64,000 nucleotides of DNA from Acidilobaceae archaeon (GTDB lineage Archaea > Thermoproteota > Thermoprotei_A > Sulfolobales > Acidilobaceae): contig JALVZQ010000005.1 of NCBI GenBank assembly GCA_027037535.1, positions 124,001 through 188,000 of the forward strand, written 5' to 3'. How positions within the stretch are numbered: position 1 is the first letter of the stretch; each line of letters begins with the position of its first letter. Made by a program: the position numbers and the translations under genes. Shown piece after piece: positions 51,713 to 64,000 of this stretch. Under the pieces are notes generated by a model. The model ran no database searches and was not told where the DNA came from. It was given only the letters and a program-made list of their open reading frames with translations.

Positions 51713-52133
51713 CTATAGCTTCTGGAGGCGTGACCCCACTATTTCATTTCTCCCCAGTCTCTTCTGATCATAGTCCTTTTTGTTCCATGTGAGTATTATG
51801 ACCCTATGATAGTTTTCTCTTAATTTAAGGGCGAGGGCAGCGAAGTCCACGTCTCCCAGGTCTAATACCATTCTCTGCGCTTCATCTACGTATTTCCTAA
51901 ACGCCTCAAGACCTGCTATTTCAATACTGCTTATTACGAGTTCAAGGAGAACTCTCAACTTCTCCCAGGACAGGCCCTTCCTCCTTGAGAGAGTTTGAGT
52001 ATGCCTCTTTATCTCTTCAAGTGCATATTCAGTTGTGTAGGTAGGATAGAGTTCTGAGAAGAGGATAAGAGTCCTCCTCGTATACCCGGTTTTCCTTAAG
52101 GAGAGAGCTTATTATGATGTTCGTGTCTACCAC
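51713..52133 (-). pseudogene. VapC-type PIN toxin broken by a frameshift
   Basis: The start IVVDTNIIISSLLKEN (first PIN Asp) is in one frame. The rest continues in another: RRTLILFSELYPTYTTEYAL, EEIKRH, then DVDFAALALKL and IILTWNKKDYDQKR with the C-terminal PIN acids. The break lies at about 52,066-52,082. All three parts together would make a normal PIN protein of about 140 residues, so the damage looks recent. It lies downstream of an equally damaged antitoxin. Confidence 0.7.
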
Positions 52134-52359
52134 TATGGCCCTCTTTTCTCTCTGCCAGGCCTTTCTTCACCTGCTCCTCCATCCATACCGCTTCCTCCGC
52201 TGTGAGACCTGCCTCCCGGGCGAGCAAGTCAGCTATAAACGCTTTCACAGCTGCCCTCGCCAGCATGGGCTCCCAGCCTCTACCCACGAGGGCCTCCAGC
52301 TTCTCCGGCACCTACACCTCTATCGTTATCTTCTTAGTTTTCATCGCAGTCTCCGCTAT
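52096..52359 (-). pseudogene. VapB-like antitoxin with lost start and nonsense codon
   Basis: The frame reads IAETAMKTKKITIEV-stop-VPEKLEALVGRG. At the position where intact copies have ATG (26 bases after the TATA box) there is ATA (52357-52359), and the Glu of EVEVPE has become TAG (52312-52314). The remaining frame is a helical antitoxin-like C-terminus that overlaps the PIN start. An internal ATG could still express only 9 codons. Confidence 0.65.
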
Positions 52360-52459
52360 TCTACTATCACGACTACCGATGCTTATATCCCGGTCCCCTA
52401 TGCGTGGATCGTTTTAATATATCCACTACAGAAATATTATTAAGAGGAGGTGCGAGATA

Positions 52460-52495
52460 ATGGGTGACAAGGGAAACGGAAGCGACGACTTCTAA
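52460..52495 (+). CDS. Mini-ORF copy 3, 11 residues
   Basis: Eleven codons (MGDKGNGSDDF) and TAA. The promoter is GTTTTAATATATC, the leader CAGAAATATTATTAAGA, and GGAGGTG (52446-52452) stands seven bases before the ATG. A C/T-rich stretch follows the stop. It is longer and diverged but keeps the MGD start and acidic, Gly-rich composition. Confidence 0.45.
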   Translation: MGDKGNGSDDF

Positions 52496-52541
52496 GTACC
52501 TTTCTTTTAGACTTCTATTCTATTGGCCCTCTTATTTGCTT

Positions 52542-52643
52542 TCACTCCAAGTATTTGAGGAACTCTTCGTGTTCCTCTTCCAGTATTAACTCGCCGTGGT
52601 GCTTAGAGAGGATCCTGTTCGCTTTCTTCCCTATGTGTGACAT
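52542..52643 (-). CDS. Small helical ORF, 33 residues
   Basis: Reads MSHIGKKANRILSKHHGELI and ends LEEEHEEFLKYLE. The composition is a charged amphipathic helix, as in short antitoxins. No clear ribosome-binding site or promoter was found, and it lies within a mosaic of VapC fragments, so it may be a gene fragment. Confidence 0.25.
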   Translation of the reverse strand: MSHIGKKANRILSKHHGELILEEEHEEFLKYLE

Positions 52644-52670
52644 CATATAGCAAGGAGTTTACTCCTCTTA

Positions 52671-52790
52671 TCAAAGATCTTCGTCCTCCTCAAATGCAGC
52701 CAGCAGTTTATAGGGCCTGTAGTTTGGGTTGCCTCGAAGCATCTCTATGAGGGCGTAGGTGTCAGCATAGTAGAGGCATATTAGCCCTCC
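52671..52790 (-). pseudogene. VapC (PIN) N-terminal fragment fused to another VapC start
   Basis: Reads LYYADTYALIEMLRGNPNYRPYKLLAAFEED: the first PIN strand with its Asp, then a helix. It stops abruptly at a sequence identical to the junction upstream of the VapC at 55728 (GAGGAGGACGAAGATCT followed by TGATAAGAGGAGTA). The fragment thus ends in a piece of a second cassette, showing recombination between TA units. It has no start codon of its own. Confidence 0.55.
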
Positions 52791-52978
52791 CTTAACTCGT
52801 CCTTAAGCCTCTGAGGATCAACCTTCCAACCCTTTAGGAGACCAAAGATCTCCTCCCCCTCTTCCTTGGAAAGAAGCCTCCACAAAACCTCCCCAGAAAC
52901 CTCCACCCTAACACCAACTTTACCAACCCCCACACCTGCCTGTCTACCCGTCCCCATCTTAGCCAACACTTCCACCAT
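52781..52978 (-). CDS. VapB-like antitoxin next to a broken toxin
   Basis: 65 residues, MVEVLAKMGTGRQAGVGVGK followed by VGVRVEVSGEVLWRLLSKEE and a helical end. The N-terminal constant strand is diverged here. TATA (TTTATAT complement, centre 53,003) is 25 bases before the ATG, so it is leaderless. The cognate toxin directly downstream is only a fragment. Confidence 0.6.
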   Translation of the reverse strand: MVEVLAKMGTGRQAGVGVGKVGVRVEVSGEVLWRLLSKEEGEEIFGLLKGWKVDPQRLKDELREG

Positions 52979-53081
52979 ACTACTATCATATCTACTAACG
53001 TTTATATCCCGGGGCTCTTCCCCTGCCTGGAACGCTTTTATAGATTCACTATAGAAATATTAATGCAGGAGGTAGATAAAG

Positions 53082-53105
53082 ATGGGCGACTATGACCAGG
53101 GTTAG
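53082..53105 (+). CDS. Mini-ORF copy 4, peptide MGDYDQG
   Basis: Seven codons and TAG. Promoter CCTGGAACGCTTTTATAG, leader ATTCACTATAGAAATATTAA, GGAGGT (53068-53073) eight bases before the ATG. The promoter and leader are almost identical to copy 1. The stop overlaps, in antisense, the stop of a giant-gene remnant, exactly as in copy 5. A C/T-rich tract follows. Confidence 0.5.
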   Translation: MGDYDQG

Positions 53106-53155
53106 AGTCTTTCCCTCGTTCTCTTTGTTCCAGAGAACGTTCCCTACCATTATAG
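53102..53155 (-). pseudogene. Remnant of the 3' end of the giant gene
   Basis: In the minus frame ending at TAA (53102-53104) the last codons read GTFSGTKRTRERL. The giant gene at 59960 ends GTFPRIKRIREKP, and the DNA around both ends is clearly related. Here the sequence is fused directly to the end of a truncated HEPN gene, so the giant gene was probably deleted from this unit. Confidence 0.5.
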
Positions 53156-53168
53156 TGTTGTGTGGAAC

Positions 53169-53381
53169 TCAACAATTCACCCCCAGGCGAGACAACTGTT
53201 CTCTGACCCATCTCACAACCAACTCACCAAGCTCTAATGCCTCCTTTGCCTCATCCAGAGTTACTATTTCCTCAAAGCCCGGATACCTCGCCTCCACCGC
53301 GTACTCAGTTAATATCCGGGCCTCATTGATTAAGCCCGTGTCAAATCCACGGCTCCCCACCAAATCCATCAATAAGCCCAT
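53169..53381 (-). pseudogene. HEPN toxin 1, internally deleted
   Basis: Retains only the C-terminal half of a HEPN domain: GLLMDLVGSRGFDT, LTEYAVEARYPGFEE and the constant end QLSRLGVNC. Just upstream are traces of the normal start (CRW) followed by a stop, so about 50 codons including the N-terminal helices and the HAQQAAEKALK segment are deleted. The partner MNT gene upstream is intact. Confidence 0.7.
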
Positions 53382-53396
53382 CTACACGCTACTTCT

Positions 53397-53744
53397 TCAC
53401 GCAATAGGCACTCCCTCCCTCACGGCCTCATAGGCAATTGTCCCCGGGCTCTCCCTATACTTTATCCAGTAGCTTCTCCTCACCGTTATGACGTCCACCG
53501 GGATACTTAGCCTGAGATAGAGACTCCTCCTGAGCTGTTTAAGGGCCTGGGGAGAAGCGTCCTCAGACACGACTATGAGTATATCCCAGTCACTATCCTC
53601 CCGGGCATCTCCCCTCGCCCGGCTCCCAAAAAGAATAATCCTCTCAACCGTTACGCCGAGCTTCTCCGCCTCCTCCAGGACGACCCGCCTAATGAGATCC
53701 AAAGTCTCTCTATCCACACTAGCCTTAACCACCGATCTCCCCAT
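53397..53744 (-). CDS. MNT-type nucleotidyltransferase antitoxin 1
   Basis: 115 residues. The minimal nucleotidyltransferase motif is ILFGSRARGDAREDSDWDILIVV (GSx10DxD). The N-terminus MGRSVVKASVDRETLDLIRR is shared by all four MNTs of the island; the C-terminal half is copy-specific. MNT proteins neutralise HEPN RNases, in studied cases by adenylylating them. TATA lies 26 bases before the ATG (leaderless). Its HEPN partner is deleted internally. Confidence 0.88.
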   Translation of the reverse strand: MGRSVVKASVDRETLDLIRRVVLEEAEKLGVTVERIILFGSRARGDAREDSDWDILIVVSEDASPQALKQLRRSLYLRLSIPVDVITVRRSYWIKYRESPGTIAYEAVREGVPIA

Positions 53745-53767
53745 ACTAGAATAATATGATCAAGTGT

Positions 53768-54268
53768 TTATATCACGGACTCCCAATACCTCTCCCTCAT
53801 CCCCTCCTCTACCTCTTCTATCTTCTTCCCCTCGAGGAGCATCTCCACACCCTCGGTGTCGACAGCTACAAAATACTTGAAACCGGTCTCCACAGATAAC
53901 CTCAACAACTCCTTATCACCAGTCCAAAGAGGAACACCAAGAAACATAGCCAAACCAACAAAGGGCCAGTCATCCGGATCCACATCTCTCACTAGCTCCT
54001 TGGCCTTCTCCCTCACCTGATCCGGTATTTCTCTTTCGTCCCGAACTATTAGATAGGGCTTTATGAGTATTCTGAAGATCTCATATATCAGCTCTGGACT
54101 CGTCCCGACATAGCGGGCTGCTTTTGGTAAGAGTTTCTCCACCTCCTCTATTATAGCCGCCGGAACCTGAAACTCTACGCTCTCCCTCATTATCAAGAAT
54201 AATTGTCTCAGTTTCCTTCCTCCTATGAGGATAGAGAAAAGAATGTTCGTGTCTACGACTAGCCTCAT
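53768..54268 (-). CDS. VapC-type PIN-domain toxin
   Basis: 166 residues: N-terminal LVVDTNILFSILIGG with the first catalytic Asp, Glu in the EEVEKLL helix, DVDPDDWPFVGLAMFLGVPLWTGDKELL with the later acids. It ends in about 60 residues almost identical to the VapCs at 55910 and 58232; 47 bases (53913-53959) are the same in all three. It probably cuts RNA. It overlaps its antitoxin by ATGA. Confidence 0.88.
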   Translation of the reverse strand: MRLVVDTNILFSILIGGRKLRQLFLIMRESVEFQVPAAIIEEVEKLLPKAARYVGTSPELIYEIFRILIKPYLIVRDEREIPDQVREKAKELVRDVDPDDWPFVGLAMFLGVPLWTGDKELLRLSVETGFKYFVAVDTEGVEMLLEGKKIEEVEEGMRERYWESVI

Positions 54269-54495
54269 TTTATCTTCTCCGCCGCTCCCCTCTTTGCCTC
54301 CTTCGCTAACTCATCCACGATCTTGTTAGGGGCCTCAGGAAGCTGGAGCCATCTATAGGTTAAGTAAAGCTCCCATACCTTCGTGCGGAGGGTTTCGATA
54401 AAGTCCTCGCCCAAGCCTTCCGGTACTTCTACCTCAATCGTTATCTTCTTTCTTGCCCCTGTTCTTACTCTTGTTTCAACCACAGTCTCCACCAT
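54265..54495 (-). CDS. VapB-like antitoxin
   Basis: 76 residues from MVETVVETRVRTGARKKITI; the longer frame to 54585 would pass through the promoter. TATA (centre about 54,521) is 26 bases before this ATG. The constant EVEVPEGL strand is followed by a copy-specific helical region. Its stop overlaps the toxin start by four bases, giving translational coupling. Confidence 0.82.
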   Translation of the reverse strand: MVETVVETRVRTGARKKITIEVEVPEGLGEDFIETLRTKVWELYLTYRWLQLPEAPNKIVDELAKEAKRGAAEKIK

Positions 54496-54559
54496 ACTAC
54501 TATCATATCTACTAACGTTTATATCCCGGGGCTCTTCCCCTGCCTGGAACGCTTTTATA

Positions 54560-54944
54560 TCAACACCTGAGTCCTTTTTCTTCAAGTAGCCTCTTCGTAT
54601 ACTCTACGGCTTTCTCTGCCATCCTCAAGGCTTCGGCCGCCTCATCATATGATATTGGAGGGGCCGGGTACCGCGTCTCAACTGCGTAATATGTTAGCGC
54701 GGGAAGGTCCTCTTCATAGGCCCATGAGACGTCCACCTTTGACCGGAGGAGAGATAACAACCGCGCTATGTTATGGGTCCTCGGCGGCTCGATCCGATAG
54801 GCTATCAAGAGGACCTTCAAGGCCTTCTCAGCCGCCTGCTGAGCATGGAAGGCAGACTCGTCTTAAAGATCCTCCCACCAGTAGTAATTTAGCTGCTTTG
54901 AGGTCGTTCCGGGCCTTTCCCAGCCATTCACACGCCAAGCTCAA
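54560..54944 (-). pseudogene. HEPN toxin 2, disrupted by a +1 frameshift
   Basis: The gene starts with TTG overlapping the MNT stop (TTGA): LSLACEWLGKARNDLKAAKL in one frame. Around 54,860-54,868 the frame shifts by one base and continues DESAFHAQQAAEKALKVLL, RTHNIARLLSLLRSK, then LTYYAVETRYPAPP to the end. The two halves together make a normal HEPN protein of about 128 residues. The MNT partner is intact. Confidence 0.75.
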
Positions 54945-55297
54945 ACAACTACCCCCTCCCGCTCCGCCGCGTACTCAAGGCTTCCCCAAAGACCCCTTCT
55001 CTCCCGCAGCCTTTCAGCGTCCATAATTATAACGTCCACATCGCCGCCAAGCAACTCGTAAAGTCTCATGTAGAGCTTAGACCAAAACCTCATCCTCGTC
55101 CTCCAGCCCACCTCTCCCCTCACAACGATGAGTATATCCCAGTCACTATCCTCCCGGGCATCTCCCCTCGCCCGGCTCCCAAAAAGAATAATCCTCTCAA
55201 CCGTTACGCCGAGACCCCCAGCCTCCTCCAAGACGACCCGCCTAATAAGATCCAAAATCTCCCTATCCACACCAACCTTAACCATCGACTCCCCCAT
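54941..55297 (-). CDS. MNT-type nucleotidyltransferase antitoxin 2
   Basis: 118 residues with ILFGSRARGDAREDSDWDILIVV. Shared N-terminus (MGESMVKVGVDREILDLIRR), copy-specific C-terminus. The upstream TATA is weak (TAATAAA, centre about 55,323) but at the usual 26-base distance. The C-terminal codons overlap the HEPN 2 start. Confidence 0.88.
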   Translation of the reverse strand: MGESMVKVGVDREILDLIRRVVLEEAGGLGVTVERIILFGSRARGDAREDSDWDILIVVRGEVGWRTRMRFWSKLYMRLYELLGGDVDVIIMDAERLRERRGLWGSLEYAAEREGVVV

Positions 55298-55323
55298 ACA
55301 AGAATAATGTCGCCGAGTGTTTA

Positions 55324-55728
55324 TTATGGTTCCTTGAACGGATTCTCTACTCTCAGCACGCCTCTATACGGTCTCCCATCCTCCGTCACAATAACCTCTA
55401 CTCCATTATTCAGATAGGTGTAGGCAAGCAGCCTGTCCCAGAAGTAGCGTTTCGGGGAACCAGATGCTTGGAGTACCTCAGCATGCGTGTAATAAACAAT
55501 CGGAACCCTTTTTGAAAGGGATAGGATTAGGAGCTGGGCTAACGGGGTAGCAGACGGGTTCTTTCTCTTGACAACGTAGAGAGTCTCCGCGAGAACCTGG
55601 GCCGAGATCCGATAATTCTCCGGGCTCTTGAGGATCTTCTCCACCACCTCCACTGCCCTCTCATGCTTCCAACCAGCCCCACTATCCAGCGCATAGATAA
55701 GAACGTTAGTATCTACTCCTCTTATCAT
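55324..55728 (-). CDS. VapC-type PIN-domain toxin (distinct subfamily)
   Basis: 134 residues: MIRGVDTNVLIYALDS, then AETLYVVKRKN, the acidic FWDRLLAYTYLNNGVEVIVTEDGRPYRGV. It lacks the VPLWTGDKELL-type C-terminus of the other VapCs and so represents another PIN subfamily. Its start overlaps the antitoxin end by 23 bases. Confidence 0.87.
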   Translation of the reverse strand: MIRGVDTNVLIYALDSGAGWKHERAVEVVEKILKSPENYRISAQVLAETLYVVKRKNPSATPLAQLLILSLSKRVPIVYYTHAEVLQASGSPKRYFWDRLLAYTYLNNGVEVIVTEDGRPYRGVLRVENPFKEP

Positions 55729-55885
55729 AGATCTTCGTCCTCCTCAGGTCCTTCTTGTCCACGTGAAGAGGAACCCCCTTCCTGAGGAGCTCCAGCAACC
55801 TATCGACTTCTATATCCGCCCCCTTTCCAACGGGCACCTCCACCTCGATCGTTATCTTCTTAGTCCTTGCCACAGTCCCCACCAT
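55706..55885 (-). CDS. VapB-like antitoxin, 59 residues
   Basis: A short gene: MVGTVARTKKITIEVEVPVG, then DIEVDRLLELLRKG and a basic C-terminus (KDLRRTKIYDKRSRY). TATA (TATAAG, centre about 55,912) is 26 bases before the ATG, so leaderless. It ends inside the following VapC. The constant strand is present; the rest is copy-specific, matching the different VapC subfamily it is paired with. Confidence 0.82.
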   Translation of the reverse strand: MVGTVARTKKITIEVEVPVGKGADIEVDRLLELLRKGVPLHVDKKDLRRTKIYDKRSRY

Positions 55886-55909
55886 GAAGAAGTATCTGTT
55901 AGGGAATGC

Positions 55910-56410
55910 TTATATCCCCCTTACCCAACCATACTTCTCCCTCATCCCCTCCTCTACCTCTTCTATCTTCTTCCCCTCTAACAACATCTCCACACCCTCG
56001 GTGTCGACAGCTACAAAGTGTTCAAACCCAGTCCCAACCGACAACACCAACAACTCCTTATCACCAGTCCAAAGAGGAACACCAAGAAACATAGCCAAAC
56101 CAACGAAAGGTGCATCGGCGATATCCACTTCTGCTAAGAGTTGCTCTGCGAGAGCAAGCATCTCTCGATACTCTTCCCTTTCATGTAACTCTATGGTCTC
56201 GGAGACGAAGGTATCTATGGCTTCGTGTAGTTCTTCCCGTGGAAGCCTTATATACCTCTGCAGCTTAGGGGCGAGTCTGTGGAGTTCCTCGTATAGCTCC
56301 TGTGGCGCGTGCAGTTTTATGCCTTCGCCGAGCAGGACGATCTTTCTTATTTTGCCCTTTTTCAGGAGCGCGGAGAAAATGATGTTGGTGTCCGCTACCA
56401 GGTCCAGCAT
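55910..56410 (-). CDS. VapC-type PIN-domain toxin
   Basis: 166 residues: LVADTNIIFSALLKKG, a central helical region, then AEVDIADAPFVGLAMFLGVPLWTGDKELL and the constant C-terminus. The N-terminal two-thirds differ strongly from the VapC at 53768 while the C-terminal third is nearly identical. The first base overlaps the antitoxin stop. Confidence 0.88.
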   Translation of the reverse strand: MLDLVADTNIIFSALLKKGKIRKIVLLGEGIKLHAPQELYEELHRLAPKLQRYIRLPREELHEAIDTFVSETIELHEREEYREMLALAEQLLAEVDIADAPFVGLAMFLGVPLWTGDKELLVLSVGTGFEHFVAVDTEGVEMLLEGKKIEEVEEGMREKYGWVRGI

Positions 56411-56637
56411 CAGGGCTCCTCCTTGATCCTCCTGTATATGTTTCTCTTAGCCTCCCGTGCCAGTTCTTCCAGCTCCCTTTCGGCGGGCTCCCTCTCCTGG
56501 GACTTCTCCAGTATGAGGTAGAGGACTGCTCTTTTTGCTCCTGAGCGGGCTGCTCTCTCGGCCTCCTCTGGAGGCAGCCAGGAGGGGACCTCTATCTCTA
56601 CGTTCAACCTCCTCGTTTCAGCCACAGTCTCCACCAT
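56410..56637 (-). CDS. VapB-like antitoxin
   Basis: 75 residues: MVETVAETRRLNVEIEVPSW, then a Glu/Arg-rich helical C-terminus. TATA (centre about 56,663) is 26 bases before the ATG. The strand LNVEIEVPSWL is a diverged form of KKITIEVEVPEGL. Confidence 0.82.
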   Translation of the reverse strand: MVETVAETRRLNVEIEVPSWLPPEEAERAARSGAKRAVLYLILEKSQEREPAERELEELAREAKRNIYRRIKEEP

Positions 56638-56700
56638 ACTACTATCATAGTTACCAACGTTTATATCATGGCCTCTCTCCCTGCCTGGGACACTTTTATA

Positions 56701-56808
56701 TCAACACAGGAGCCCGCTCCTCACCAGCTCCCTGGCCTCCTCGTCACTGGCGGTGGGTGGTACGATGAGGGGGCGGACCCTGCTGTTGTAGCCGTGGGCG
56801 AAACTCAA
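56701..56808 (-). CDS. 35-codon ORF related to the giant protein N-terminus, copy A
   Basis: Starts with TTG overlapping the HEPN 3 stop. The core YNSRVRPLIVPPTASDEEA followed by RELV and a final LLC matches the giant protein near the right edge (YNARVHPVIVPPNAGDREA and DLVESALLSC). The second copy at 58997 has the same length and 30 of 35 residues identical. It may be a small coupled protein or a remnant left by recombination with the giant gene. Confidence 0.4.
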   Translation of the reverse strand: MSFAHGYNSRVRPLIVPPTASDEEARELVRSGLLC

Positions 56809-57184
56809 CAATTCACCCCCAGACGAGACAACTGGTTCTTGGCCCAATCCACCACCCTTCGTGCAGTCTCCAGAGCCTCCAATGCCTCCTCCTCGCTCGG
56901 CTCGTCTTCGAAGTCCGGGTACCTCGCCTCCACCGCGTAGTCCGTGAGCCTTGACGCCTCCATTACGGGCCCCACATCTACTTCCTTCCCCCGTAGAAGC
57001 ATTAAGAGGTGCTCTATGATATGCGTCTTGGGTGGCTGGACCCCTACAGCTGGTAAAACTGCTTTCAAGGCCTTCTCAGCTGCTTGTTGGCTGTGGAAGA
57101 CGCTCGCCCAGGTTATCCTATTGACCACGCCTCCGCCACGACAAGGTCTTCCCGAGCCTTCTTCAACCACATACAGGGAATCAA
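56805..57184 (-). pseudogene. HEPN toxin 3, disrupted by a frameshift
   Basis: The N-terminal part, from a TTG overlapping the MNT stop, reads LIPCMWLKKAREDLVVAEAW and stops after SIG. The rest, in another frame, reads TWASVFHSQQAAEKALKAVL and then KTHIIEHLLMLLRGKEVD, LTDYAVEARYPDFED and QLSRLGVNC. The break (about 57,113-57,125) is close to the site broken in HEPN 2 but shifts in the other direction. A GTG- or ATG-started remnant protein would lack the first helix. Confidence 0.7.
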
Positions 57185-57537
57185 ACCATTACTCCCTCCC
57201 TCTTCACAGCATAGTAAAGGTGGCCGACAGCATCCTGGTAGCTCCTCCACCTCTCCTCCGACGCCACCACAACATCCACAGGGGCCTTCAACAACTCCAC
57301 CGCCCTCCACCGTACGCGACGAGACAACTCCCTCCTAAGCCTCCTCTCCACCTCTCCCCTCACAACGACGAGTATATCCCAGTCACTATCCTCCCGGGCA
57401 TCTCCCCTCGCCCGGCTCCCAAAGAGAATAATCCTCTCAACCCCAATCCCGAGCCTGCTCGCTTCCTCTAGAATAATTTGCCTGATGAGATCCAAGACCT
57501 CCCTATCAACACCAGCCTTAACCACCGATCTCCCCAT
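57181..57537 (-). CDS. MNT-type nucleotidyltransferase antitoxin 3
   Basis: 118 residues, MGRSVVKAGVDREVLDLIRQ, ILFGSRARGDAREDSDWDIL and a copy-specific C-terminus with DVVVASEERWRSYQDA. TATA (centre about 57,563) is 26 bases before the ATG. Its reading frame is intact although HEPN 3 is not. Confidence 0.88.
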   Translation of the reverse strand: MGRSVVKAGVDREVLDLIRQIILEEASRLGIGVERIILFGSRARGDAREDSDWDILVVVRGEVERRLRRELSRRVRWRAVELLKAPVDVVVASEERWRSYQDAVGHLYYAVKREGVMV

Positions 57538-57560
57538 ACAAGAATAATGTCGCCGAGTGT

Positions 57561-58022
57561 TTATATCCCAAGTCGCTTGAACAAGTCTGCCGGTGATAAC
57601 ACCGTTATTCCCATACTTTCAAGCTCGCTGGTCAAGTAGTCCTTCTTGTTATAGGTTAGTATGATAACGTCGCTGAACATCGTGAGCAGATAGAGCGCCA
57701 GCGCGACGTAGGGACTGTCTCTGGCGTCCCGGACCAGTTTCACCGCCTTCTTCATAAACTTCTTATAACGATCTTCCTCCACTACTCTGAACACCGAGAT
57801 TAATGCTCTGAGAACCCCCTCCAACCTATCCCCGGGAATCCCCTTCCTCTCCGAGATCTCCATTATTTTGGGTCGAACCTCTTGGGTGAGGTATCTCGGT
57901 ATAAATAGCTCCGTCCCGGGGTCGAGCAGGAGTGTGAGGAGCAGTCTGTGAGTCGGTCCACCGGGTCTTATCGCTGAAGAGAGGAGCACGTTGGCATCGA
58001 TCACGACTGCAGTCTTCCCCAT
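57561..58022 (-). CDS. VapC-type PIN-domain toxin
   Basis: 153 residues: AVVIDANVLLSSAIRPGG, the helix TQEVRPKIMEISERKG, DARDSPYVALALYLLTMFSDVIILTYNKKDY. PIN acids are in place. The C-terminus (SPADLFKRLG) differs from the VPLWTGDK group, and is closer to the broken VapC at 51713 (IILTWNKKDYD). It overlaps the antitoxin by 22 bases. Confidence 0.87.
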   Translation of the reverse strand: MGKTAVVIDANVLLSSAIRPGGPTHRLLLTLLLDPGTELFIPRYLTQEVRPKIMEISERKGIPGDRLEGVLRALISVFRVVEEDRYKKFMKKAVKLVRDARDSPYVALALYLLTMFSDVIILTYNKKDYLTSELESMGITVLSPADLFKRLGI

Positions 58023-58207
58023 AGAGCCTCCTCCATCGCCTCGGCCAGCTCCTTGGCGTCCTCCTCAGTGAGCAATTTAGACAGCTCCCGGGAGGCAAGC
58101 AAGAACACGACTGCCTTGTACGCTCTCTTCAAGAACTCTTCACTAATGCCCTCTGGCACTTCTACCTCTATGGTTATCTTCTTCGTCCTTGTCACTGCCC
58201 CCACCAT
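58001..58207 (-). CDS. VapB-like antitoxin
   Basis: 68 residues from MVGAVTRTKKITIEVEVPEG, then a helical C-terminus ending EALWGRLQS. TATA (centre about 58,233) is 26 bases before this ATG; the frame extending to 58228 would lie within the promoter. The 3' end overlaps the toxin start. Confidence 0.82.
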   Translation of the reverse strand: MVGAVTRTKKITIEVEVPEGISEEFLKRAYKAVVFLLASRELSKLLTEEDAKELAEAMEEALWGRLQS

Positions 58208-58231
58208 ATCTACTATCATAGTTATCAACGT

Positions 58232-58726
58232 TTATATCACGGACTCCCCATACTTCTCCCTCATCCTCCCCTTCACTTCTCTTAGACTCTTCCCCTCGAG
58301 GAGCATCTCCACACCCTCGGCGTCGACAGCTACAAAGTGTTTAAACCCAGTCCCAACCGACAACTCTATTATCCCTTTATCACCAGTCCAAAGAGGAACA
58401 CCAAGAAACATAGCCAAACCAACAAAGGGCGCATCCTTCGGGTCTACGTCCTTGAGTAGCGTGTATGCTTTCTTGGCCGATTCAAGGTAATCTTTCCGAG
58501 GCACGATGGTAACGATATGGGAAAGTATAGTCTCCCTTACCATTCTTACCTCAGCGGGAGAAAGCTTGGTGTACCTTAGTATCTTTGGTTCAAGGATCTC
58601 CAGCTCCAGAGCGAGTTCCTCTGGAGCATAGAGGTCGAGAGAAGACCGGAAGAGAATCTCCCTTATTCTGCCAGGCTTTATAATGGCCGAGAAAACTATG
58701 TTTGTGTCAACCACCAGCGTAAGCAT
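58232..58726 (-). CDS. VapC-type PIN-domain toxin
   Basis: 164 residues: LVVDTNIVFSAIIKPG, helix LALELEILEPKILRY, KDVDPKDAPFVGLAMFLGVPLWTGDKG and the constant C-terminus with FVAVDAEGVEMLLEG. Shares the 47-base identical block with the VapCs at 53768 and 55910. It overlaps the antitoxin by 20 bases. Confidence 0.88.
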   Translation of the reverse strand: MLTLVVDTNIVFSAIIKPGRIREILFRSSLDLYAPEELALELEILEPKILRYTKLSPAEVRMVRETILSHIVTIVPRKDYLESAKKAYTLLKDVDPKDAPFVGLAMFLGVPLWTGDKGIIELSVGTGFKHFVAVDAEGVEMLLEGKSLREVKGRMREKYGESVI

Positions 58727-58937
58727 GCTTTACCCGCTCCCACACCCTGGCCTTGGCTTCTTCCACTGCCCTAGTCAGCTCTTCCTCATCTACCTTGCCC
58801 GACGCCTTCGCTTGTAGCAGAGCGTAGGCCACGAGCCTTCTAACGAATTCTTCGGCCATGCCCCCCAGCCACTCCAGTCCTTCTGGCACTTCCACCTCTA
58901 TGGTTATCTTCTTAGTCCTTGTCACTGCCCCCACCAT
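58707..58937 (-). CDS. VapB-like antitoxin
   Basis: 76 residues from MVGAVTRTKKITIEVEVPEG, then EWLGGMAEEFVRRLVAYALL and an alanine-rich helix. The first 20 residues are identical to the antitoxin at 58001; the rest is unrelated. TATA (centre about 58,963) is 26 bases before the ATG. Confidence 0.82.
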   Translation of the reverse strand: MVGAVTRTKKITIEVEVPEGLEWLGGMAEEFVRRLVAYALLQAKASGKVDEEELTRAVEEAKARVWERVKHAYAGG

Positions 58938-58996
58938 ATCTACTATCTTACCTCCCAACGTTTATATCCCGGCCCCCTGCCTGGGACACTTTTATA

Positions 58997-59104
58997 TCAA
59001 CACAGGAGCCTGCTCCCCACCAGCTCCCTGGCCTCCTCGTCACTGGCGGTGGGTGGTACGATGAGGGGGTGGACTTTGCTGTTGTAGTCGTGGGCGAGAC
59101 TCAA
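58997..59104 (-). CDS. 35-codon ORF related to the giant protein N-terminus, copy B
   Basis: TTG start overlapping the HEPN 4 stop; LSLAHDYNSKVHPLIVPPTA then SDEEARELVGSRLLC. It is 30/35 identical to copy A at 56701 and similar to the start of the giant protein. Translational coupling to HEPN through the overlapping TTGA is possible. Confidence 0.4.
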   Translation of the reverse strand: MSLAHDYNSKVHPLIVPPTASDEEARELVGSRLLC

Positions 59105-59493
59105 CAATTCACCCCCAAGCGAGACAGATGTTGCTTCACCCAGTCGACTACCTTGTTTGCCTTATCCAAAGCGTACTCCGCCTCCTCCCTTATTATGGGA
59201 GGGCCCGGATACCTGGGTTCCACGGCATAATAAGTCAACTCCTCCGCATCTATTCCCCTCAGATAAGAGACATCCGTCTTCCTACCTAACAGATCAATCA
59301 GCTCCCATAAATCATGAGTCCTCGGAGCAGGAACACCGTATGCTACAAGAAGAGCCTTCAAGGCCTTCTCAGCCGCCTGTTGAGCATGGAAGGCCGCAAG
59401 CCCCGGATCCACCCCAATATCCATAGCAGCCTCAGCAAGCCTAAGATCGTCCAACGCCTTCCGTAGCCATCTACAAGCAAGTGGCTCAGGCAT
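59101..59493 (-). CDS. HEPN toxin 4 (only intact copy)
   Basis: 130 residues from MPEPLACRWLRKALDDLRLA; a longer start at 59523 is possible. Central AAFHAQQAAEKALKALLVAYG, PRTHDLWELIDLLG, LTYYAVEPRYPGPP and the end HLSRLGVNC. HEPN proteins of MNT-HEPN pairs are RNase toxins. Its start lies eight bases inside the MNT gene. Confidence 0.85.
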   Translation of the reverse strand: MPEPLACRWLRKALDDLRLAEAAMDIGVDPGLAAFHAQQAAEKALKALLVAYGVPAPRTHDLWELIDLLGRKTDVSYLRGIDAEELTYYAVEPRYPGPPIIREEAEYALDKANKVVDWVKQHLSRLGVNC

Positions 59494-59842
59494 GCACCCC
59501 TTCACCCGTGATGACCGATTCAAAGGAAACCCGCTCTCCCACCATCATCCTATAGTACTGCTCCGGTTCGATGATCAAGTCCAAGGGCTTACCCAGCAAC
59601 GGGCGAAGACGCCTATAGACGTTCCTCCAGAACCTCATCCTCGTCCTCCAGCCCACCTCTCCCCTCACAACGATGAGTATATCCCAGTCGCTGTCCTCCC
59701 GATAATCTCCCCGGGCCCGGCTCCCAAAGAGAATAATCCTCTCAACCCCAATCCCGAGCCTGCTCGCTTCCTCCAGAATAATTTGCCTAATGAGATCCAA
59801 GACCTCCCTATCAACACTAGCCCCGGCCATCGACTTCCCCAT
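59486..59842 (-). CDS. MNT-type nucleotidyltransferase antitoxin 4
   Basis: 118 residues: MGKSMAGASVDREVLDLIRQ, ILFGSRARGDYREDSDWDIL, a C-terminal part with GWRTRMRFWRNVYRRLRPLL related to MNT 2. TATA (59865-59870) centred 25 bases before the ATG. This is the only pair with both members intact. Confidence 0.88.
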   Translation of the reverse strand: MGKSMAGASVDREVLDLIRQIILEEASRLGIGVERIILFGSRARGDYREDSDWDILIVVRGEVGWRTRMRFWRNVYRRLRPLLGKPLDLIIEPEQYYRMMVGERVSFESVITGEGVHA

Positions 59843-59864
59843 ACAAGAATAATGTCGCCGAGTG

Positions 59865-59870
59865 TTTATA
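59865..59870 (-). promoter_or_regulatory. Leaderless TA promoter (type example of eleven)
   Basis: TATAAA followed by about 26 bases and then the first codon. The same ATATAAAC-like box at the same distance precedes the TA operons starting at 51398, 52978, 53744, 54495, 55297 (weaker), 55885, 56637, 57537, 58207 and 58937. Since archaeal transcription starts 24-26 bases after the TATA centre, these mRNAs should begin at or next to the start codon. Each TA pair therefore has an independent promoter despite the tandem arrangement. Confidence 0.7.
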
Positions 59871-59939
59871 TCCCGGGCCCCTGCCTGGAACGTTTTTATA
59901 CATCCTCTGCAGAAATATTAATGCAGGAGGTGTGGGATG

Positions 59940-59963
59940 ATGGGTGACTATGACCAGGTTTAA
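59940..59963 (+). CDS. Mini-ORF copy 5, peptide MGDYDQV
   Basis: Seven codons and TAA. Promoter CCTGGAACGTTTTTATAC, leader CAGAAATATTAATGCA, GGAGGTG (59926-59932) seven bases before the ATG. Its stop overlaps in antisense the stop of the giant gene (59960-59962). A T/C-rich stretch follows. It is divergent from MNT 4. Confidence 0.5.
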   Translation: MGDYDQV

Positions 59964-62011
59964 GGTTTTTCCCTTATCCTCTTTATTCTGGGGAAGGTTC
60001 CCTCTATGAGCCTTCTCTTGACATTGAACAGGTCCATCGCCACCCTGTGGCTGAGCATTCCTTCCCTTCCGGGCCCTGGCTCCACGGCGAAGTTCTCCGC
60101 GTTTAGGAGTGGCCTGTACATGTTGTAGGCGAGCCTCGTGACGTTGCCCATCGCGTTCACGGCCCCCCTTATCCTCTCCACCGCCTCGAGCATGGCCCTC
60201 CTGGGGTCTTCTGCCCCCTCCGCTGACTTCCTTATCCTCATCCACATCATGTGGAGGTCCGCTGCCACCGGTGCTATGCTGTGCTTCTCTGCTTCCCTCT
60301 CGTAGTACCTGAGTAGTGCGGCGGCTATCCGCTTCTTTTCGTCCAGTGGGAGGTACTGTACCGTGGGGTGTCTTGCGGCGGCTATTATTGGGGCGTCGAG
60401 GAGTATGTTCCTGAGGAGGTTTGTGGCCCAGCTCCTCAGCTGGGGGTCTTCTATTCCTTCCCGTCGGAGCGTTTCCTCTGCTCTCCTCGTTATCTCCGCC
60501 ACGGTCTGGGTGAGGGGTTCTCCGGTGGTGATGACCTGGTCGAGGTTTTCCCTGAGGATTTTTTCGAGGGTGTTGAGGGTTTTCTCCTGTTCTTCTCTGC
60601 CGAGCTGGGTCTCTGCGAGGACCTGGTTCTTTATCTCCTGGTATACGTTGAGGATGTTTTGTTTTCCTTCGAGGATGATCCTCCTTATGTAGGGGTGGGG
60701 CTCCTTGTTGTCTGCGAGGGGCCTGAGCTGGTGGTATCTTAGGGCCGCTTCCTTCTCGGCGTCGAGGAGGTGTGGGTCTTTCCCGTTCTTGAGTTCTTGG
60801 AGGTCTCGGAGCAGCTCGGCGAGTACTCTCTGGAGGGTCTTGGGCGTTATGTTCTGGGGTAGTCCGAGGCTCTGGGCTATTCTCCTCGCTTCCTCCTCCG
60901 TTAGCTCCCTGGTGGGGTCTGTTGTGGCGAGGTGTCTTATGGCTTCGTGGGGGTGGCTGGGCTGTTTCCCGCTTGTTATTTCTCTCTCCCACTCGGAGAG
61001 TACTGTGGTTATGAGGCCGTGGAGGAGGGTCCCCTTCGGGTCCGCGGGGTCTGCTCTCTGGACGTGGTATTTTACTATGCTGGGGTGTATTCCTTCCTGG
61101 GAGGTGTAGAGGGGGATTTTTGCCTGGTCGAGGGCTGTTTTTATGACCCATCCCGGGAGCTGTTCGGCTATGGCCATCCTGAGGAGTTCCCTCGCGCCCG
61201 TGTGCTCTGGGACGCCGGGTCCTTCGAGTTCTTCGGGTTTTATTCCGAGGAATTCTTCGGGTTTCTTGAGGGCTTCTGCGTGGGGTGTTCCTCTTATCCG
61301 TGAGAGGAGGGTTGCGTAGGCGAGGTTGGGGTTTTGTGACCAGTTCTTTATTCCTGTTTTCTTTAGAACGCGGTATAGGGTGTTCACAAGCTCGTTCCAG
61401 TGCCTGTAGTACTGTTTTATTTCTGGTTGTTTTTCTGCTATTTTTTCGAGGGGGCTCGATAGGAACCACTGGAGTGCCCTGGCTGGGTCTGCGAGTGCTA
61501 CGAAGGTGCGTCTCAGCTCATCTCCGTGTTTTTCTTTTATGTAGTCTGCTGTTAGGTGGGGGAAGTACTTTGATAGTTCGTGGGCGGTGTGGATTAGGGT
61601 GGAGGCTATGTAGTTGAAGAACTTTTTCCTGTCCTTGTGGAGGCCTTTTTCTACGGCGAGCTTTATGGCCTTGTAGAGGAGGGTTGCGGTGGGCTTGTAG
61701 GCAGGAGAGAGGTCATCTTTTCGGATTATTTCTTCTATGTACCGTTTTATGAGGGGGTCTTCTACTTGTTCTTTTATCTTTTCGATTTCTTCTCTTTCCT
61801 TGGGGTTTTCTTCTGCTATGGCTTCTATGGTTGCCCGGAGTTTTTCTATTTCCTTGTAGCGTGCTTTTTCTTCCTCTGGTAGGGGGCCTCTCGCCTCTTC
61901 TTCTCGCCTTATTATTTGTTCTGCGTGTTTTTCTGCTTGTTCGGCCCTTTTCTTCAGCTGGTAGTATTTTATTATCCAGCCAAGGACCGTGCTTTCATCC
62001 CCCTTCTTTTC
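59960..62011 (-). CDS. Giant coiled-coil protein, C-terminal part (frameshifted)
   Basis: Open for 683 codons, but the first ATG, GTG or TTG is at 61387. The 208 codons upstream of that are protein-like (DESTVLGWIIKYYQLKKRAE and following) yet have no usable start. The natural reading is continuation of the frame at 61995 by a +1 shift at the GGGGG run 61999-62003. The protein is helical and Glu/Arg/Lys-rich with coiled-coil stretches, and ends GTFPRIKRIREKP. No domain was recognised. Confidence 0.6.
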   Translation of the reverse strand, partial: EKKGDESTVLGWIIKYYQLKKRAEQAEKHAEQIIRREEEARGPLPEEEKARYKEIEKLRATIEAIAEENPKEREEIEKIKEQVEDPLIKRYIEEIIRKDDLSPAYKPTATLLYKAIKLAVEKGLHKDRKKFFNYIASTLIHTAHELSKYFPHLTADYIKEKHGDELRRTFVALADPARALQWFLSSPLEKIAEKQPEIKQYYRHWNELVNTLYRVLKKTGIKNWSQNPNLAYATLLSRIRGTPHAEALKKPEEFLGIKPEELEGPGVPEHTGARELLRMAIAEQLPGWVIKTALDQAKIPLYTSQEGIHPSIVKYHVQRADPADPKGTLLHGLITTVLSEWEREITSGKQPSHPHEAIRHLATTDPTRELTEEEARRIAQSLGLPQNITPKTLQRVLAELLRDLQELKNGKDPHLLDAEKEAALRYHQLRPLADNKEPHPYIRRIILEGKQNILNVYQEIKNQVLAETQLGREEQEKTLNTLEKILRENLDQVITTGEPLTQTVAEITRRAEETLRREGIEDPQLRSWATNLLRNILLDAPIIAAARHPTVQYLPLDEKKRIAAALLRYYEREAEKHSIAPVAADLHMMWMRIRKSAEGAEDPRRAMLEAVERIRGAVNAMGNVTRLAYNMYRPLLNAENFAVEPGPGREGMLSHRVAMDLFNVKRRLIEGTFPRIKRIREKP

Positions 62012-64000
62012 CTATGGTTAGGTTTCCGATCCTTATATACGATGCGTTCTCTCCCAGGGTGAGGGTGAGTGTCTGGACGGCGGGTGTGCCTACGGTGTGG
62101 TAGGCGGCCAGGGTCCCTGTGAGGTATCCTGCTACTACGCAGGGGAAGGTCTTGAATACGTCTTTCCCGAACTCCTTCAGCCTTTCTACCTTGGTGAGCG
62201 CCTTTCCTTCCTTGAGGAGTTTTGCTGCTTCGTCCGCTTCCTTGGCTGCCTCGTCTACTACGCTCTTGGCCTCCTCTGCCGACTCTGTGATGGTCTTCCT
62301 TGCCTCTTCTTCCACATCCGTGGGCGTCACCGTTCCTTGCTTTCTCTCTTTCAGCTCGTCCAACTTCTCCATGAATTTATCTGGTTTTGGTAGTTTCTCT
62401 CCGAGGGTTGTCTTGAGCTTCTCTATCTCCCTTGTGAGGACCTGCTTTATGTTCTTGAACCGGGTGTAGGAGTCCCGGAAGCTCTTGTTGAAGAGCCTGA
62501 GTTCTTCCTCGGAGAGTTCCTCTCCTCTCTGTGCCTTGAGCAGGATGTCCGTGATCTTCGAATAGCCTGCCTCCTTCGCCGAGGTTATCTTGTTGGCGAG
62601 GAGGGTCTTCAGGTCGGGGTATGTTTGTAAGAGCTTCGAGTACCTCTTATCACTCTTGGCTACCTCTTCTATTATGGCTACGGGATCCTTTTCAAGGACA
62701 TCCGGATCTTTCGCAACGTATTCTTTCAGTTCGGTGATGAACGAGCTGAGATCCCTGTTACACGTCGTTCCCGTGGCCCCAACACCAGTACAGAGGCTCC
62801 GTGATAGCTCAACGGAGCCGAGCTGTTTCAAGCTCTTAGCCGTCTCTTCGCGGACAAGCCTGATTCCCTCATCGCTCAGGTACTTTTCCGGCTCCCTGAG
62901 CGCCTCGCCGGTCATCTTGAGGAACGAACGGTAAATCCTCTCGCTCTCGGCCCCTATCTTCTTCAGGGCCTCCTCGGTCAAGACCCTCTCGCGGAGCGCC
63001 TGGTAGTAGTGGAGCGCGTACTTGTCCACGAAGACATCGTCCCCGGAGTCGAGCACGTCGGCCACGAGGGTGCTCCATTTGGTGCTACAGTATGTGGGCG
63101 AGATGTGGCAGATCTTTGCCAGGGCACTGACCCGGTCCGCCGGCTTCGAGAGTATCTTTGCCTGTTCGAGGGCGTCCCTGACCGGGGCATCGGGGAAGAG
63201 GGCCCTGAACTGCTCAGCTATCACCCTCTCGTACTGCCACCGGGATATGAAGGGAGAAAGCCGGGAGATCTTCCCCTGAGACGCCAAGTACTGCTGGACG
63301 GCGCGGTCGGCCAGATACCTCTGGGCAACGGACCGGGACGTGGCGAGAACCGTGCCACCATAGGCGAGCGACCCGACGAACGTGGCGGCCGTCTGCTCCA
63401 GCCCCATCCAGGGGACGGTATAGGAGTAGAGGCCCACGCTACCAGTATCGGCGAGACTCTCCCTCATCTTGTCCTCCACCGTGGCCTTCGCCAAATAGGG
63501 AGGAAGCCAGCAGGTAGCACCAGCCTCGAGGACAGCGGCGAGACCACCCACGAACATCTTGGAGGCCATCTCGCAGGCGAACAGGCCGGCGGTACAGGCC
63601 ACGCCAAAGGTGTTGAGGGTGTGGGTACCCAAAACCTCATCCGTTATCCTCGTATCAATATACTTCCCATAACAGGTGTTCTCCAGGCCCAGCGCCTCTT
63701 TGGTATCCTTGTCGACGCACAGGGCGAAGTGCTGTTCCTCGAAGGGCTTCTGGCCCAGGTCAAACTCCGTGACGAGGAGCCTGAGGGTATCCTCGAGCGT
63801 GTTGTACCGGTCGAGTATCCTTACCGGTATATTGTTGTCGCCGCCGCAGGAGAGTAGAGCGCTTTCCACCAGGTCTTTGGCTTCCCTGTCGCCGGCGTTG
63901 GGCGGAACGATGACTGGGTGGACTCTGGCGTTGTAGTTCTGGGTGAGGGCTTGGAGGAGGTTCTTTTCGAAGGCCTGCTGGGCCGACTGGGGGCTGTCCT
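61995..64000 (-). CDS. Giant protein, N-terminal part (partial, runs off the window)
   Basis: Open to the right edge, so the start is outside; 667 residues visible. The visible N-terminus SAQQAFEKNLLQALTQNYN resembles the HEPN helix HAQQAAEKALK, and YNARVHPVIVPPNAGDREA matches the 35-codon ORFs. Then come a cysteine-containing region with hydrophobic segments (LCVDKDTKEAL, VACTAGLFACEMASKMFVGG), long helical coiled-coil stretches, and a hydrophobic segment FPCVVAGYLTGTLAAYHTVG before the TGA. No known family was recognised. GC content is higher than in the core genome. Confidence 0.6.
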   Translation of the reverse strand, partial: DSPQSAQQAFEKNLLQALTQNYNARVHPVIVPPNAGDREAKDLVESALLSCGGDNNIPVRILDRYNTLEDTLRLLVTEFDLGQKPFEEQHFALCVDKDTKEALGLENTCYGKYIDTRITDEVLGTHTLNTFGVACTAGLFACEMASKMFVGGLAAVLEAGATCWLPPYLAKATVEDKMRESLADTGSVGLYSYTVPWMGLEQTAATFVGSLAYGGTVLATSRSVAQRYLADRAVQQYLASQGKISRLSPFISRWQYERVIAEQFRALFPDAPVRDALEQAKILSKPADRVSALAKICHISPTYCSTKWSTLVADVLDSGDDVFVDKYALHYYQALRERVLTEEALKKIGAESERIYRSFLKMTGEALREPEKYLSDEGIRLVREETAKSLKQLGSVELSRSLCTGVGATGTTCNRDLSSFITELKEYVAKDPDVLEKDPVAIIEEVAKSDKRYSKLLQTYPDLKTLLANKITSAKEAGYSKITDILLKAQRGEELSEEELRLFNKSFRDSYTRFKNIKQVLTREIEKLKTTLGEKLPKPDKFMEKLDELKERKQGTVTPTDVEEEARKTITESAEEAKSVVDEAAKEADEAAKLLKEGKALTKVERLKEFGKDVFKTFPCVVAGYLTGTLAAYHTVGTPAVQTLTLTLGENASYIRIGNLTIGKEGG

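What the first reader, a model, noticed from the sequence alone, without database searches (positions are those of the whole stretch)
61990..62015. Giant gene split at a G5 run: +1 frameshift or sequencing error
The frame from the right edge ends at TGA (61995-61997) right after GAAGGGGGATGA. The next frame, one base shifted, is open and protein-like for 208 codons upstream of its first ATG, GTG or TTG. Skipping one G joins them into a protein of more than 1,300 residues. Programmed +1 shifting at a G run is possible, but a recent mutation or an assembly error in a homopolymer is as likely.
Basis: partly seen in the sequence, partly recalled or inferred. Interest (0 to 1): 0.6.

Follow-up and report, generated by a model that had tools for sequence, protein, structure and literature searches.

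The report
Two abutting genes, second lacks start
What looked like one giant archaeal gene cut by a frameshift is a pair of neighbouring genes, as in its relatives, and the second copy here has lost a usable start codon through a tiny change, so it is most likely an ordinary decaying accessory gene (or a sequence error).

Summary
Codon usage switches from A to B exactly there. The giant-gene reading is not supported. In all four relatives with an intact junction (G001, G012, G016, G017) these are two separate genes: the upstream one ends in ...IGG-stop or ...IGGTGG-stop, and the downstream one has its own ATG one base after the stop (three cases) or overlapping it as ATGA (G017). The window keeps the G017 layout (same 12-nt spacing, TGA/ATG overlap at 61998-61995), but its ATG runs into TAA after eight codons; frame B is one base off. 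The parsimonious reading is a one-base lesion within about 24 nt after the start, a true recent mutation or a sequence error. The downstream gene is also broken in five of eight assessable relatives. No relative is fused, and the G run has no plausible slip at the stop. Less likely: initiation at the near-cognate ACG (61990-61988). Both proteins lack known-family matches and lie in a GC-rich, toxin-antitoxin-rich island. Ordinary; interest low. A second conserved startless gene, shared with a sister species, was noted.

The parts
61995..64000 (-). Upstream gene (frame A), 3' part; continues outside the window to C5:188743. Ends ...TLTLTLGENASYIRIGNLTIGKEGG*
   Evidence: homologues G016, G012, G066, G017, G001
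61995..61997 (-). TGA, normal end of the upstream gene (relatives stop at the equivalent ...IGG-stop)
61999..62003 (-). G5 run; in relatives this place is GGNGG or GGAGG just before the start, probably a Shine-Dalgarno-like element
   Evidence: role inferred
61996..61998 (-). ATG overlapping the TGA (ATGA, -4 overlap), same position as the start codon in G017; out of frame with frame B by one base
61972..61998 (-). Abortive frame from that ATG: MKARSLAG then TAA (61974-61972); the inferred one-base lesion lies between 61995 and about 61975
   Evidence: site of lesion inferred
61988..61990 (-). ACG, near-cognate codon in frame B, 8 nt after the G5 run; rival start site
   Evidence: use as start not shown
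59960..62011 (-). Downstream gene body (frame B, stop to stop); homology to relatives from about 61993 to 59963
61385..61387 (-). First canonical start codon (GTG) in frame B, inside the conserved protein

Best explanation
This is a conserved two-gene unit of one archaeal family (Acidilobaceae/Desulfurococcales relatives): a membrane-associated upstream protein ending at the TGA and a separate, largely helical downstream protein whose start sits at the upstream stop, so that ribosomes terminate and reinitiate there. In this genome the stop/start overlap (ATGA) is still present, but a one-base length change within the first few codons puts that ATG out of frame with the intact remainder of the downstream gene. 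The lesion is either a real, recent mutation in a mobile, often-decaying accessory gene (favoured) or a sequence error. Shown: the two-gene layout in four relatives, the retained ATG, the frame mismatch, and frequent breakage in relatives. Inferred: termination-reinitiation, the exact lesion, and loss of expression.
For: G001, G012 and G016 all read ...(ATAGGNGGA)-TAA-1 nt-ATG with separate downstream proteins. G017 reads ACCATAGG-12 nt-ATGA with the downstream gene starting at that ATG; the window has ACCATAGG-12 nt-ATGA. The coding switch is exactly at the junction. The downstream HMM starts at the junction in own, G001, G012, G016 and G017. The downstream gene is broken or truncated inside contigs in G001 (in-frame TGA), G011, G025, G155 and G032, and intact in G012, G016 and G017. 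The locus is a 50-58% GC island in a 43% GC contig with repeated toxin-antitoxin modules. The -4 overlap (ATGA) is the commonest tightly coupled layout in Haloferax volcanii (PMC10666635).
Against: Frame B has 683 codons without a stop, so if it is a pseudogene the lesion must be very recent. The lesion cannot be located by alignment because the first residues diverge between relatives. No copy of the downstream gene from the same species was available; G003's contig ends inside the upstream gene. A one-base lesion and a natural non-AUG start are not separable from this sequence alone.
Confidence: 0.66

Rival explanations
1. The downstream gene is intact and starts at a non-canonical codon, most likely ACG 61990-61988, with the G5 run as Shine-Dalgarno element and ribosomes delivered by termination at the TGA.
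For: Frame B is in the same register as the TAA-N-ATG layout of three relatives. ACG differs from ATG by one base and gives an N-terminus MVLGWIIKYYQ resembling G012 MPTWIRKIIQ. The ORF is fully open. Another conserved gene on this contig (C5:337411) also lacks ATG/GTG/TTG in frame, as does its counterpart in sister species G003.
Against: The closest junction layout (G017) starts at the ATG overlapping the stop. Archaeal aIF1 discriminates against non-canonical starts (PMC8211752). Even ATT, the seventh best start codon in a test of all 64, gave about 0.3% of ATG (Hecht et al. 2017 as quoted in PMC10666635). A paper search found no archaeal ACG start.
Confidence: 0.18
2. Programmed +1 ribosomal frameshifting at the G run makes one fused protein of about 1,550 residues.
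For: The two frames abut and are both coding; skipping one G would join them.
Against: No relative is fused; four have stop plus own start here. P-site tRNA for GGA cannot re-pair with GAU when the TGA is in the A site, and a slip at GGG GGA would have no stop to stall on. The review used knew only one confirmed programmed frameshift in cellular archaea, a -1 event in fucA1, plus a putative +1 in a haloarchaeal virus (PMC8211752).
Confidence: 0.04
3. Programmed -1 frameshifting after initiation at ATG 61998, within the eight-codon frame MKARSLAG.
For: The shift from the ATG frame to frame B is by -1.
Against: ATGAAAGCACGGTCCTTGGCTGGATAA contains no X-XXY-YYZ heptamer in frame, and relatives need no shift.
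Confidence: 0.03
4. Pure sequencing or assembly error; the real genome has an intact start (a sub-case of the best explanation, listed because the remedy is resequencing).
For: An otherwise fully open ORF with a lesion at one spot. In S. solfataricus an apparent frameshift in aIF1 vanished on resequencing (PMC8211752).
Against: Only two other startless coding stretches were found on 387 kb, the stronger one shared with an independent assembly, so indel errors look rare; G5 and AAA are short homopolymers.
Confidence: 0.25

Closest known systems
Translationally coupled gene pairs with -4 nt (ATGA) or very short spacing, as in Haloferax volcanii (PMC10666635)
   Same: Stop and start overlap or lie 1 nt apart in every relative with an intact junction; same strand; Shine-Dalgarno-like G-rich element inside the upstream 3' end
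   Different: In the window the overlapping ATG is out of frame with the downstream gene
Sulfolobus solfataricus fucA1 (-1 programmed frameshift, PMC8211752)
   Same: Two adjacent coding frames in a thermophilic archaeon of the same order-level group
   Different: fucA1 relatives are full-length single ORFs and the site is an A-AAA-AAT heptamer; here relatives are two genes and no slippery heptamer exists
Bacterial RF2 (prfB) +1 frameshift (from general knowledge)
   Same: G-rich SD-like stretch just before a TGA
   Different: No CUU-type shifty codon before the TGA, different spacing, no conservation, no fused homologues
Frameshifted or decaying genes of mobile islands
   Same: Sporadic distribution, GC shift, many broken relatives, toxin-antitoxin neighbours
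   Different: The body of the gene is still entirely open

Membership tests
Programmed +1 frameshift gene | Homologues encode one continuous protein or conserve the shift site | tested here: not met
   Two separate genes in G001, G012, G016, G017
Programmed +1 frameshift gene | P-site tRNA can re-pair in the +1 frame at the stop | tested here: not met
   GGA-UGA to GAU: second-position mismatch (sequence)
Programmed +1 frameshift gene | Trans-frame product exists | not testable with these tools
   needs proteomics
Coupled gene pair (termination-reinitiation) | Stop and downstream start overlap or lie within a few nt | tested here: met
   All four relatives; ATGA present in the window
Coupled gene pair (termination-reinitiation) | Start codon in frame with the downstream gene | tested here: not met
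   In the window ATG reads MKARSLAG*; frame B has no ATG/GTG/TTG for 208 codons
-1 programmed frameshift (fucA1 type) | In-frame X-XXY-YYZ slippery heptamer before the zero-frame stop | tested here: not met
   none in 61998-61972
Decaying accessory gene | Patchy distribution and broken copies in relatives | tested here: met
   12 of 214 genomes of the order match; 5 of 8 assessable relatives broken
Decaying accessory gene | Relaxed selection on this copy | tested here: inconclusive
   No close orthologue of the downstream gene; the upstream gene vs G003 has dN/dS 0.36 over 197 codons
Non-canonical (ACG) start | Initiation demonstrated at that codon | not testable with these tools
   needs N-terminomics or ribosome profiling

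The most novel reading that the evidence does not exclude
The archaeon really translates the downstream gene from a non-AUG/GUG/UUG codon (ACG) by termination-reinitiation. Together with the second startless gene shared with G003, this would mean that the lineage tolerates non-canonical initiation in some genes.
Probability: 0.13. Interest if true: 0.5.

Novelty: new member of a known kind. Interest (0 to 1): 0.17.

Why it matters
Mainly as annotation hygiene: two adjacent genes should not be fused in silico because a homopolymer happens to lie between them. If the start were truly non-canonical, it would be a testable case of archaeal initiation without ATG, GTG or TTG. The pair itself has no matches in the protein libraries searched, so the neighbourhood (HerA-like ATPase, ubiquitin-like E1-E2-JAB operon, toxin-antitoxin modules) may be of more interest than the junction.

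Tried and rejected
Giant fused gene: rejected on comparison with relatives. First idea that the register matched TAA-N-ATG so that no indel was needed: kept only as a rival after G017 showed the ATGA layout. Searches of viral contigs with P0002, A2 and A3, of plasmids and of Pfam and PADLOC for both proteins gave no relatives or only insignificant or marginal hits. AlphaFold models of both proteins from 3-4 sequences were poor (mean pLDDT 52 and 49), so no fold search was run.

Full report
OBSERVATION. The bases are as described. On the minus strand the sequence reads ...ACC ATA GGA AAA GAA GGG GGA TGA AAGCACGGTCCTTGGCTGGATAATAAAATAC: G5 at 62003-61999, TGA at 61997-61995. The second frame (59960-62011, 683 codons) has no ATG/GTG/TTG for 208 codons. 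On contig C5 (386,789 bases, fetched as stretches), a codon-usage scan finds this to be the strongest startless coding stretch (86 bits; next 26 and 12.5). In 20-codon blocks the coding signal moves from frame A to frame B exactly at the junction. So the anomaly is real.

RELATIVES. The window is G000:C5:124001-188000. Homologues of the downstream protein occur in a few genomes of the same family and order, and of the upstream protein likewise. At the junction, G001 reads ATAGGTGGA TAA g ATG, G016 ATAGGGGGA TAA c ATG and G012 ATAGGTGGA TAA a ATG, each with a separate downstream protein. G017 reads ACCATAGGGGGGACGGGAGG ATGA, the downstream ATG overlapping the upstream TGA. No relative has the two fused. 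The TGA in the window is therefore the normal end of the upstream gene, whose C-terminal ...IGG (or IGxxGG) is conserved.

WHAT IS WRONG IN THIS COPY. The window shares with G017 both the two-residue insertion before GG-stop and the 12-nt spacing between ATAGG and ATGA. So ATG 61998-61996 is most likely the ancestral start. It reads MKARSLAG and hits TAA at 61974-61972, whereas the homologous protein continues in frame B, one base away. A profile of the downstream family begins at this place in own, G001, G012, G016 and G017. The simplest account is a one-base length change between about 61995 and 61975. An alternative without any length change is initiation at ACG 61990-61988, which lies in frame B, 8 nt after the G5 run; this register equals TAA-N-ATG plus one codon. 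I rate it lower because the nearest layout uses the ATG, because archaeal aIF1 discriminates against non-canonical starts (PMC8211752), and because start codons other than the usual ones were very weak where measured (ATT about 0.3% of ATG, as quoted in PMC10666635).

FRAMESHIFTING. A +1 slip at the stop would move the glycyl-tRNA from GGA to GAU, which it cannot pair with at the second position. A slip earlier, at GGG-GGA, would occur without the stop codon in the A site. There is no in-frame slippery heptamer in the short ATG frame. The archaeal review I could read lists one confirmed programmed frameshift in cellular archaea, fucA1 (-1), and also an apparent frameshift in S. solfataricus aIF1 that vanished on resequencing (PMC8211752).

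DECAY CONTEXT. The locus is an island of 50-58% GC in a contig of about 43% GC, next to repeated PIN-domain (VapC-like) and HEPN/nucleotidyltransferase modules (names from sequence inspection; repeats). In relatives the downstream gene is intact in G012, G016 and G017, but carries an in-frame TGA in G001 and is frameshifted or truncated in G011, G025, G155 and G032; G029 and G037 are cut by contig ends. In G001 and G017 the upstream gene is reduced to its C-terminal part. A lesion in this copy is therefore unremarkable. A sequence error remains possible. The low number of similar cases on C5, and the fact that the next strongest (C5:337411) also lacks a canonical start in the independent genome G003, argue that errors are not common.

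UPSTREAM GENE. Its frame also lacks ATG/GTG/TTG for the first 83 codons, with coding resemblance starting near codon 57, at the GC boundary. G003 shares this: the AT-rich 156 nt before are 99% identical between the two genomes, whereas over codons 56-253 dS is 0.21 and dN/dS 0.36. This suggests that the island edge cut the gene, or that its start is unusual; not resolved.

FUNCTION. Pfam and PADLOC gave no significant match for either protein. AlphaFold models were poor. The downstream protein is predicted largely helical; the upstream one has hydrophobic segments (by eye), including one near the C-terminus. Homologues of the upstream gene lie near a HerA-like ATPase gene in G016, G037, G066 and G003, so a membrane-associated system of an accessory element is a reasonable guess, no more.

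VERDICT. Observation confirmed; one giant gene or programmed +1 shift not supported; two abutting genes with a damaged (or, less likely, non-canonical) start of the second. Low interest.

Noticed in passing
G000:C5:337411-336599 (L073); G003 counterpart L074: A gene present in all 13 genomes searched has no in-frame ATG/GTG/TTG near its start here and in sister species G003 (97% identical). In own genome a GTG frame reading MPRRRR... sits one base off, like homologues that start MPRR; possible non-canonical start, frameshift or slippage at an A-rich tract.
   Followed up: partly
L004 5733-7960 minus (G000:C5:188732-190959, just right of the window): Operon with a ubiquitin-like/E1 (ThiF) fusion-like protein, an E2-like (UQ_con, weak) and a JAB-like protein; the JAB protein was found only in own and G003 among 31 genomes, 100% identical.
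   Followed up: partly
window 52000-60000: Toxin-antitoxin-like island: four copies of a 278-nt nucleotidyltransferase segment, three of a 244-nt PIN-domain segment and HEPN genes in repeated modules, 74-86% identical.
   Followed up: partly
window 56716-56802, 59012-59098 and 63861-63947: Pieces of the upstream gene (RVHPVIVPPNAGDREAKDLV region) recur just downstream of HEPN genes, suggesting recombination between the modules and this gene.
   Followed up: no
L005 6758-7100 (G001): The start of a PIN-domain gene (MKLELVVDT) runs directly into the C-terminal part of the upstream gene, looking like a deletion junction.
   Followed up: no
L014 2637-4454, L015 8872-10626, L017 2009-3787, L018 4618-6000: HerA/FtsK-like ATPase genes with an N-terminal zinc-ribbon-like stretch lie near the upstream-gene family in several genomes, on the opposite strand.
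   Followed up: no
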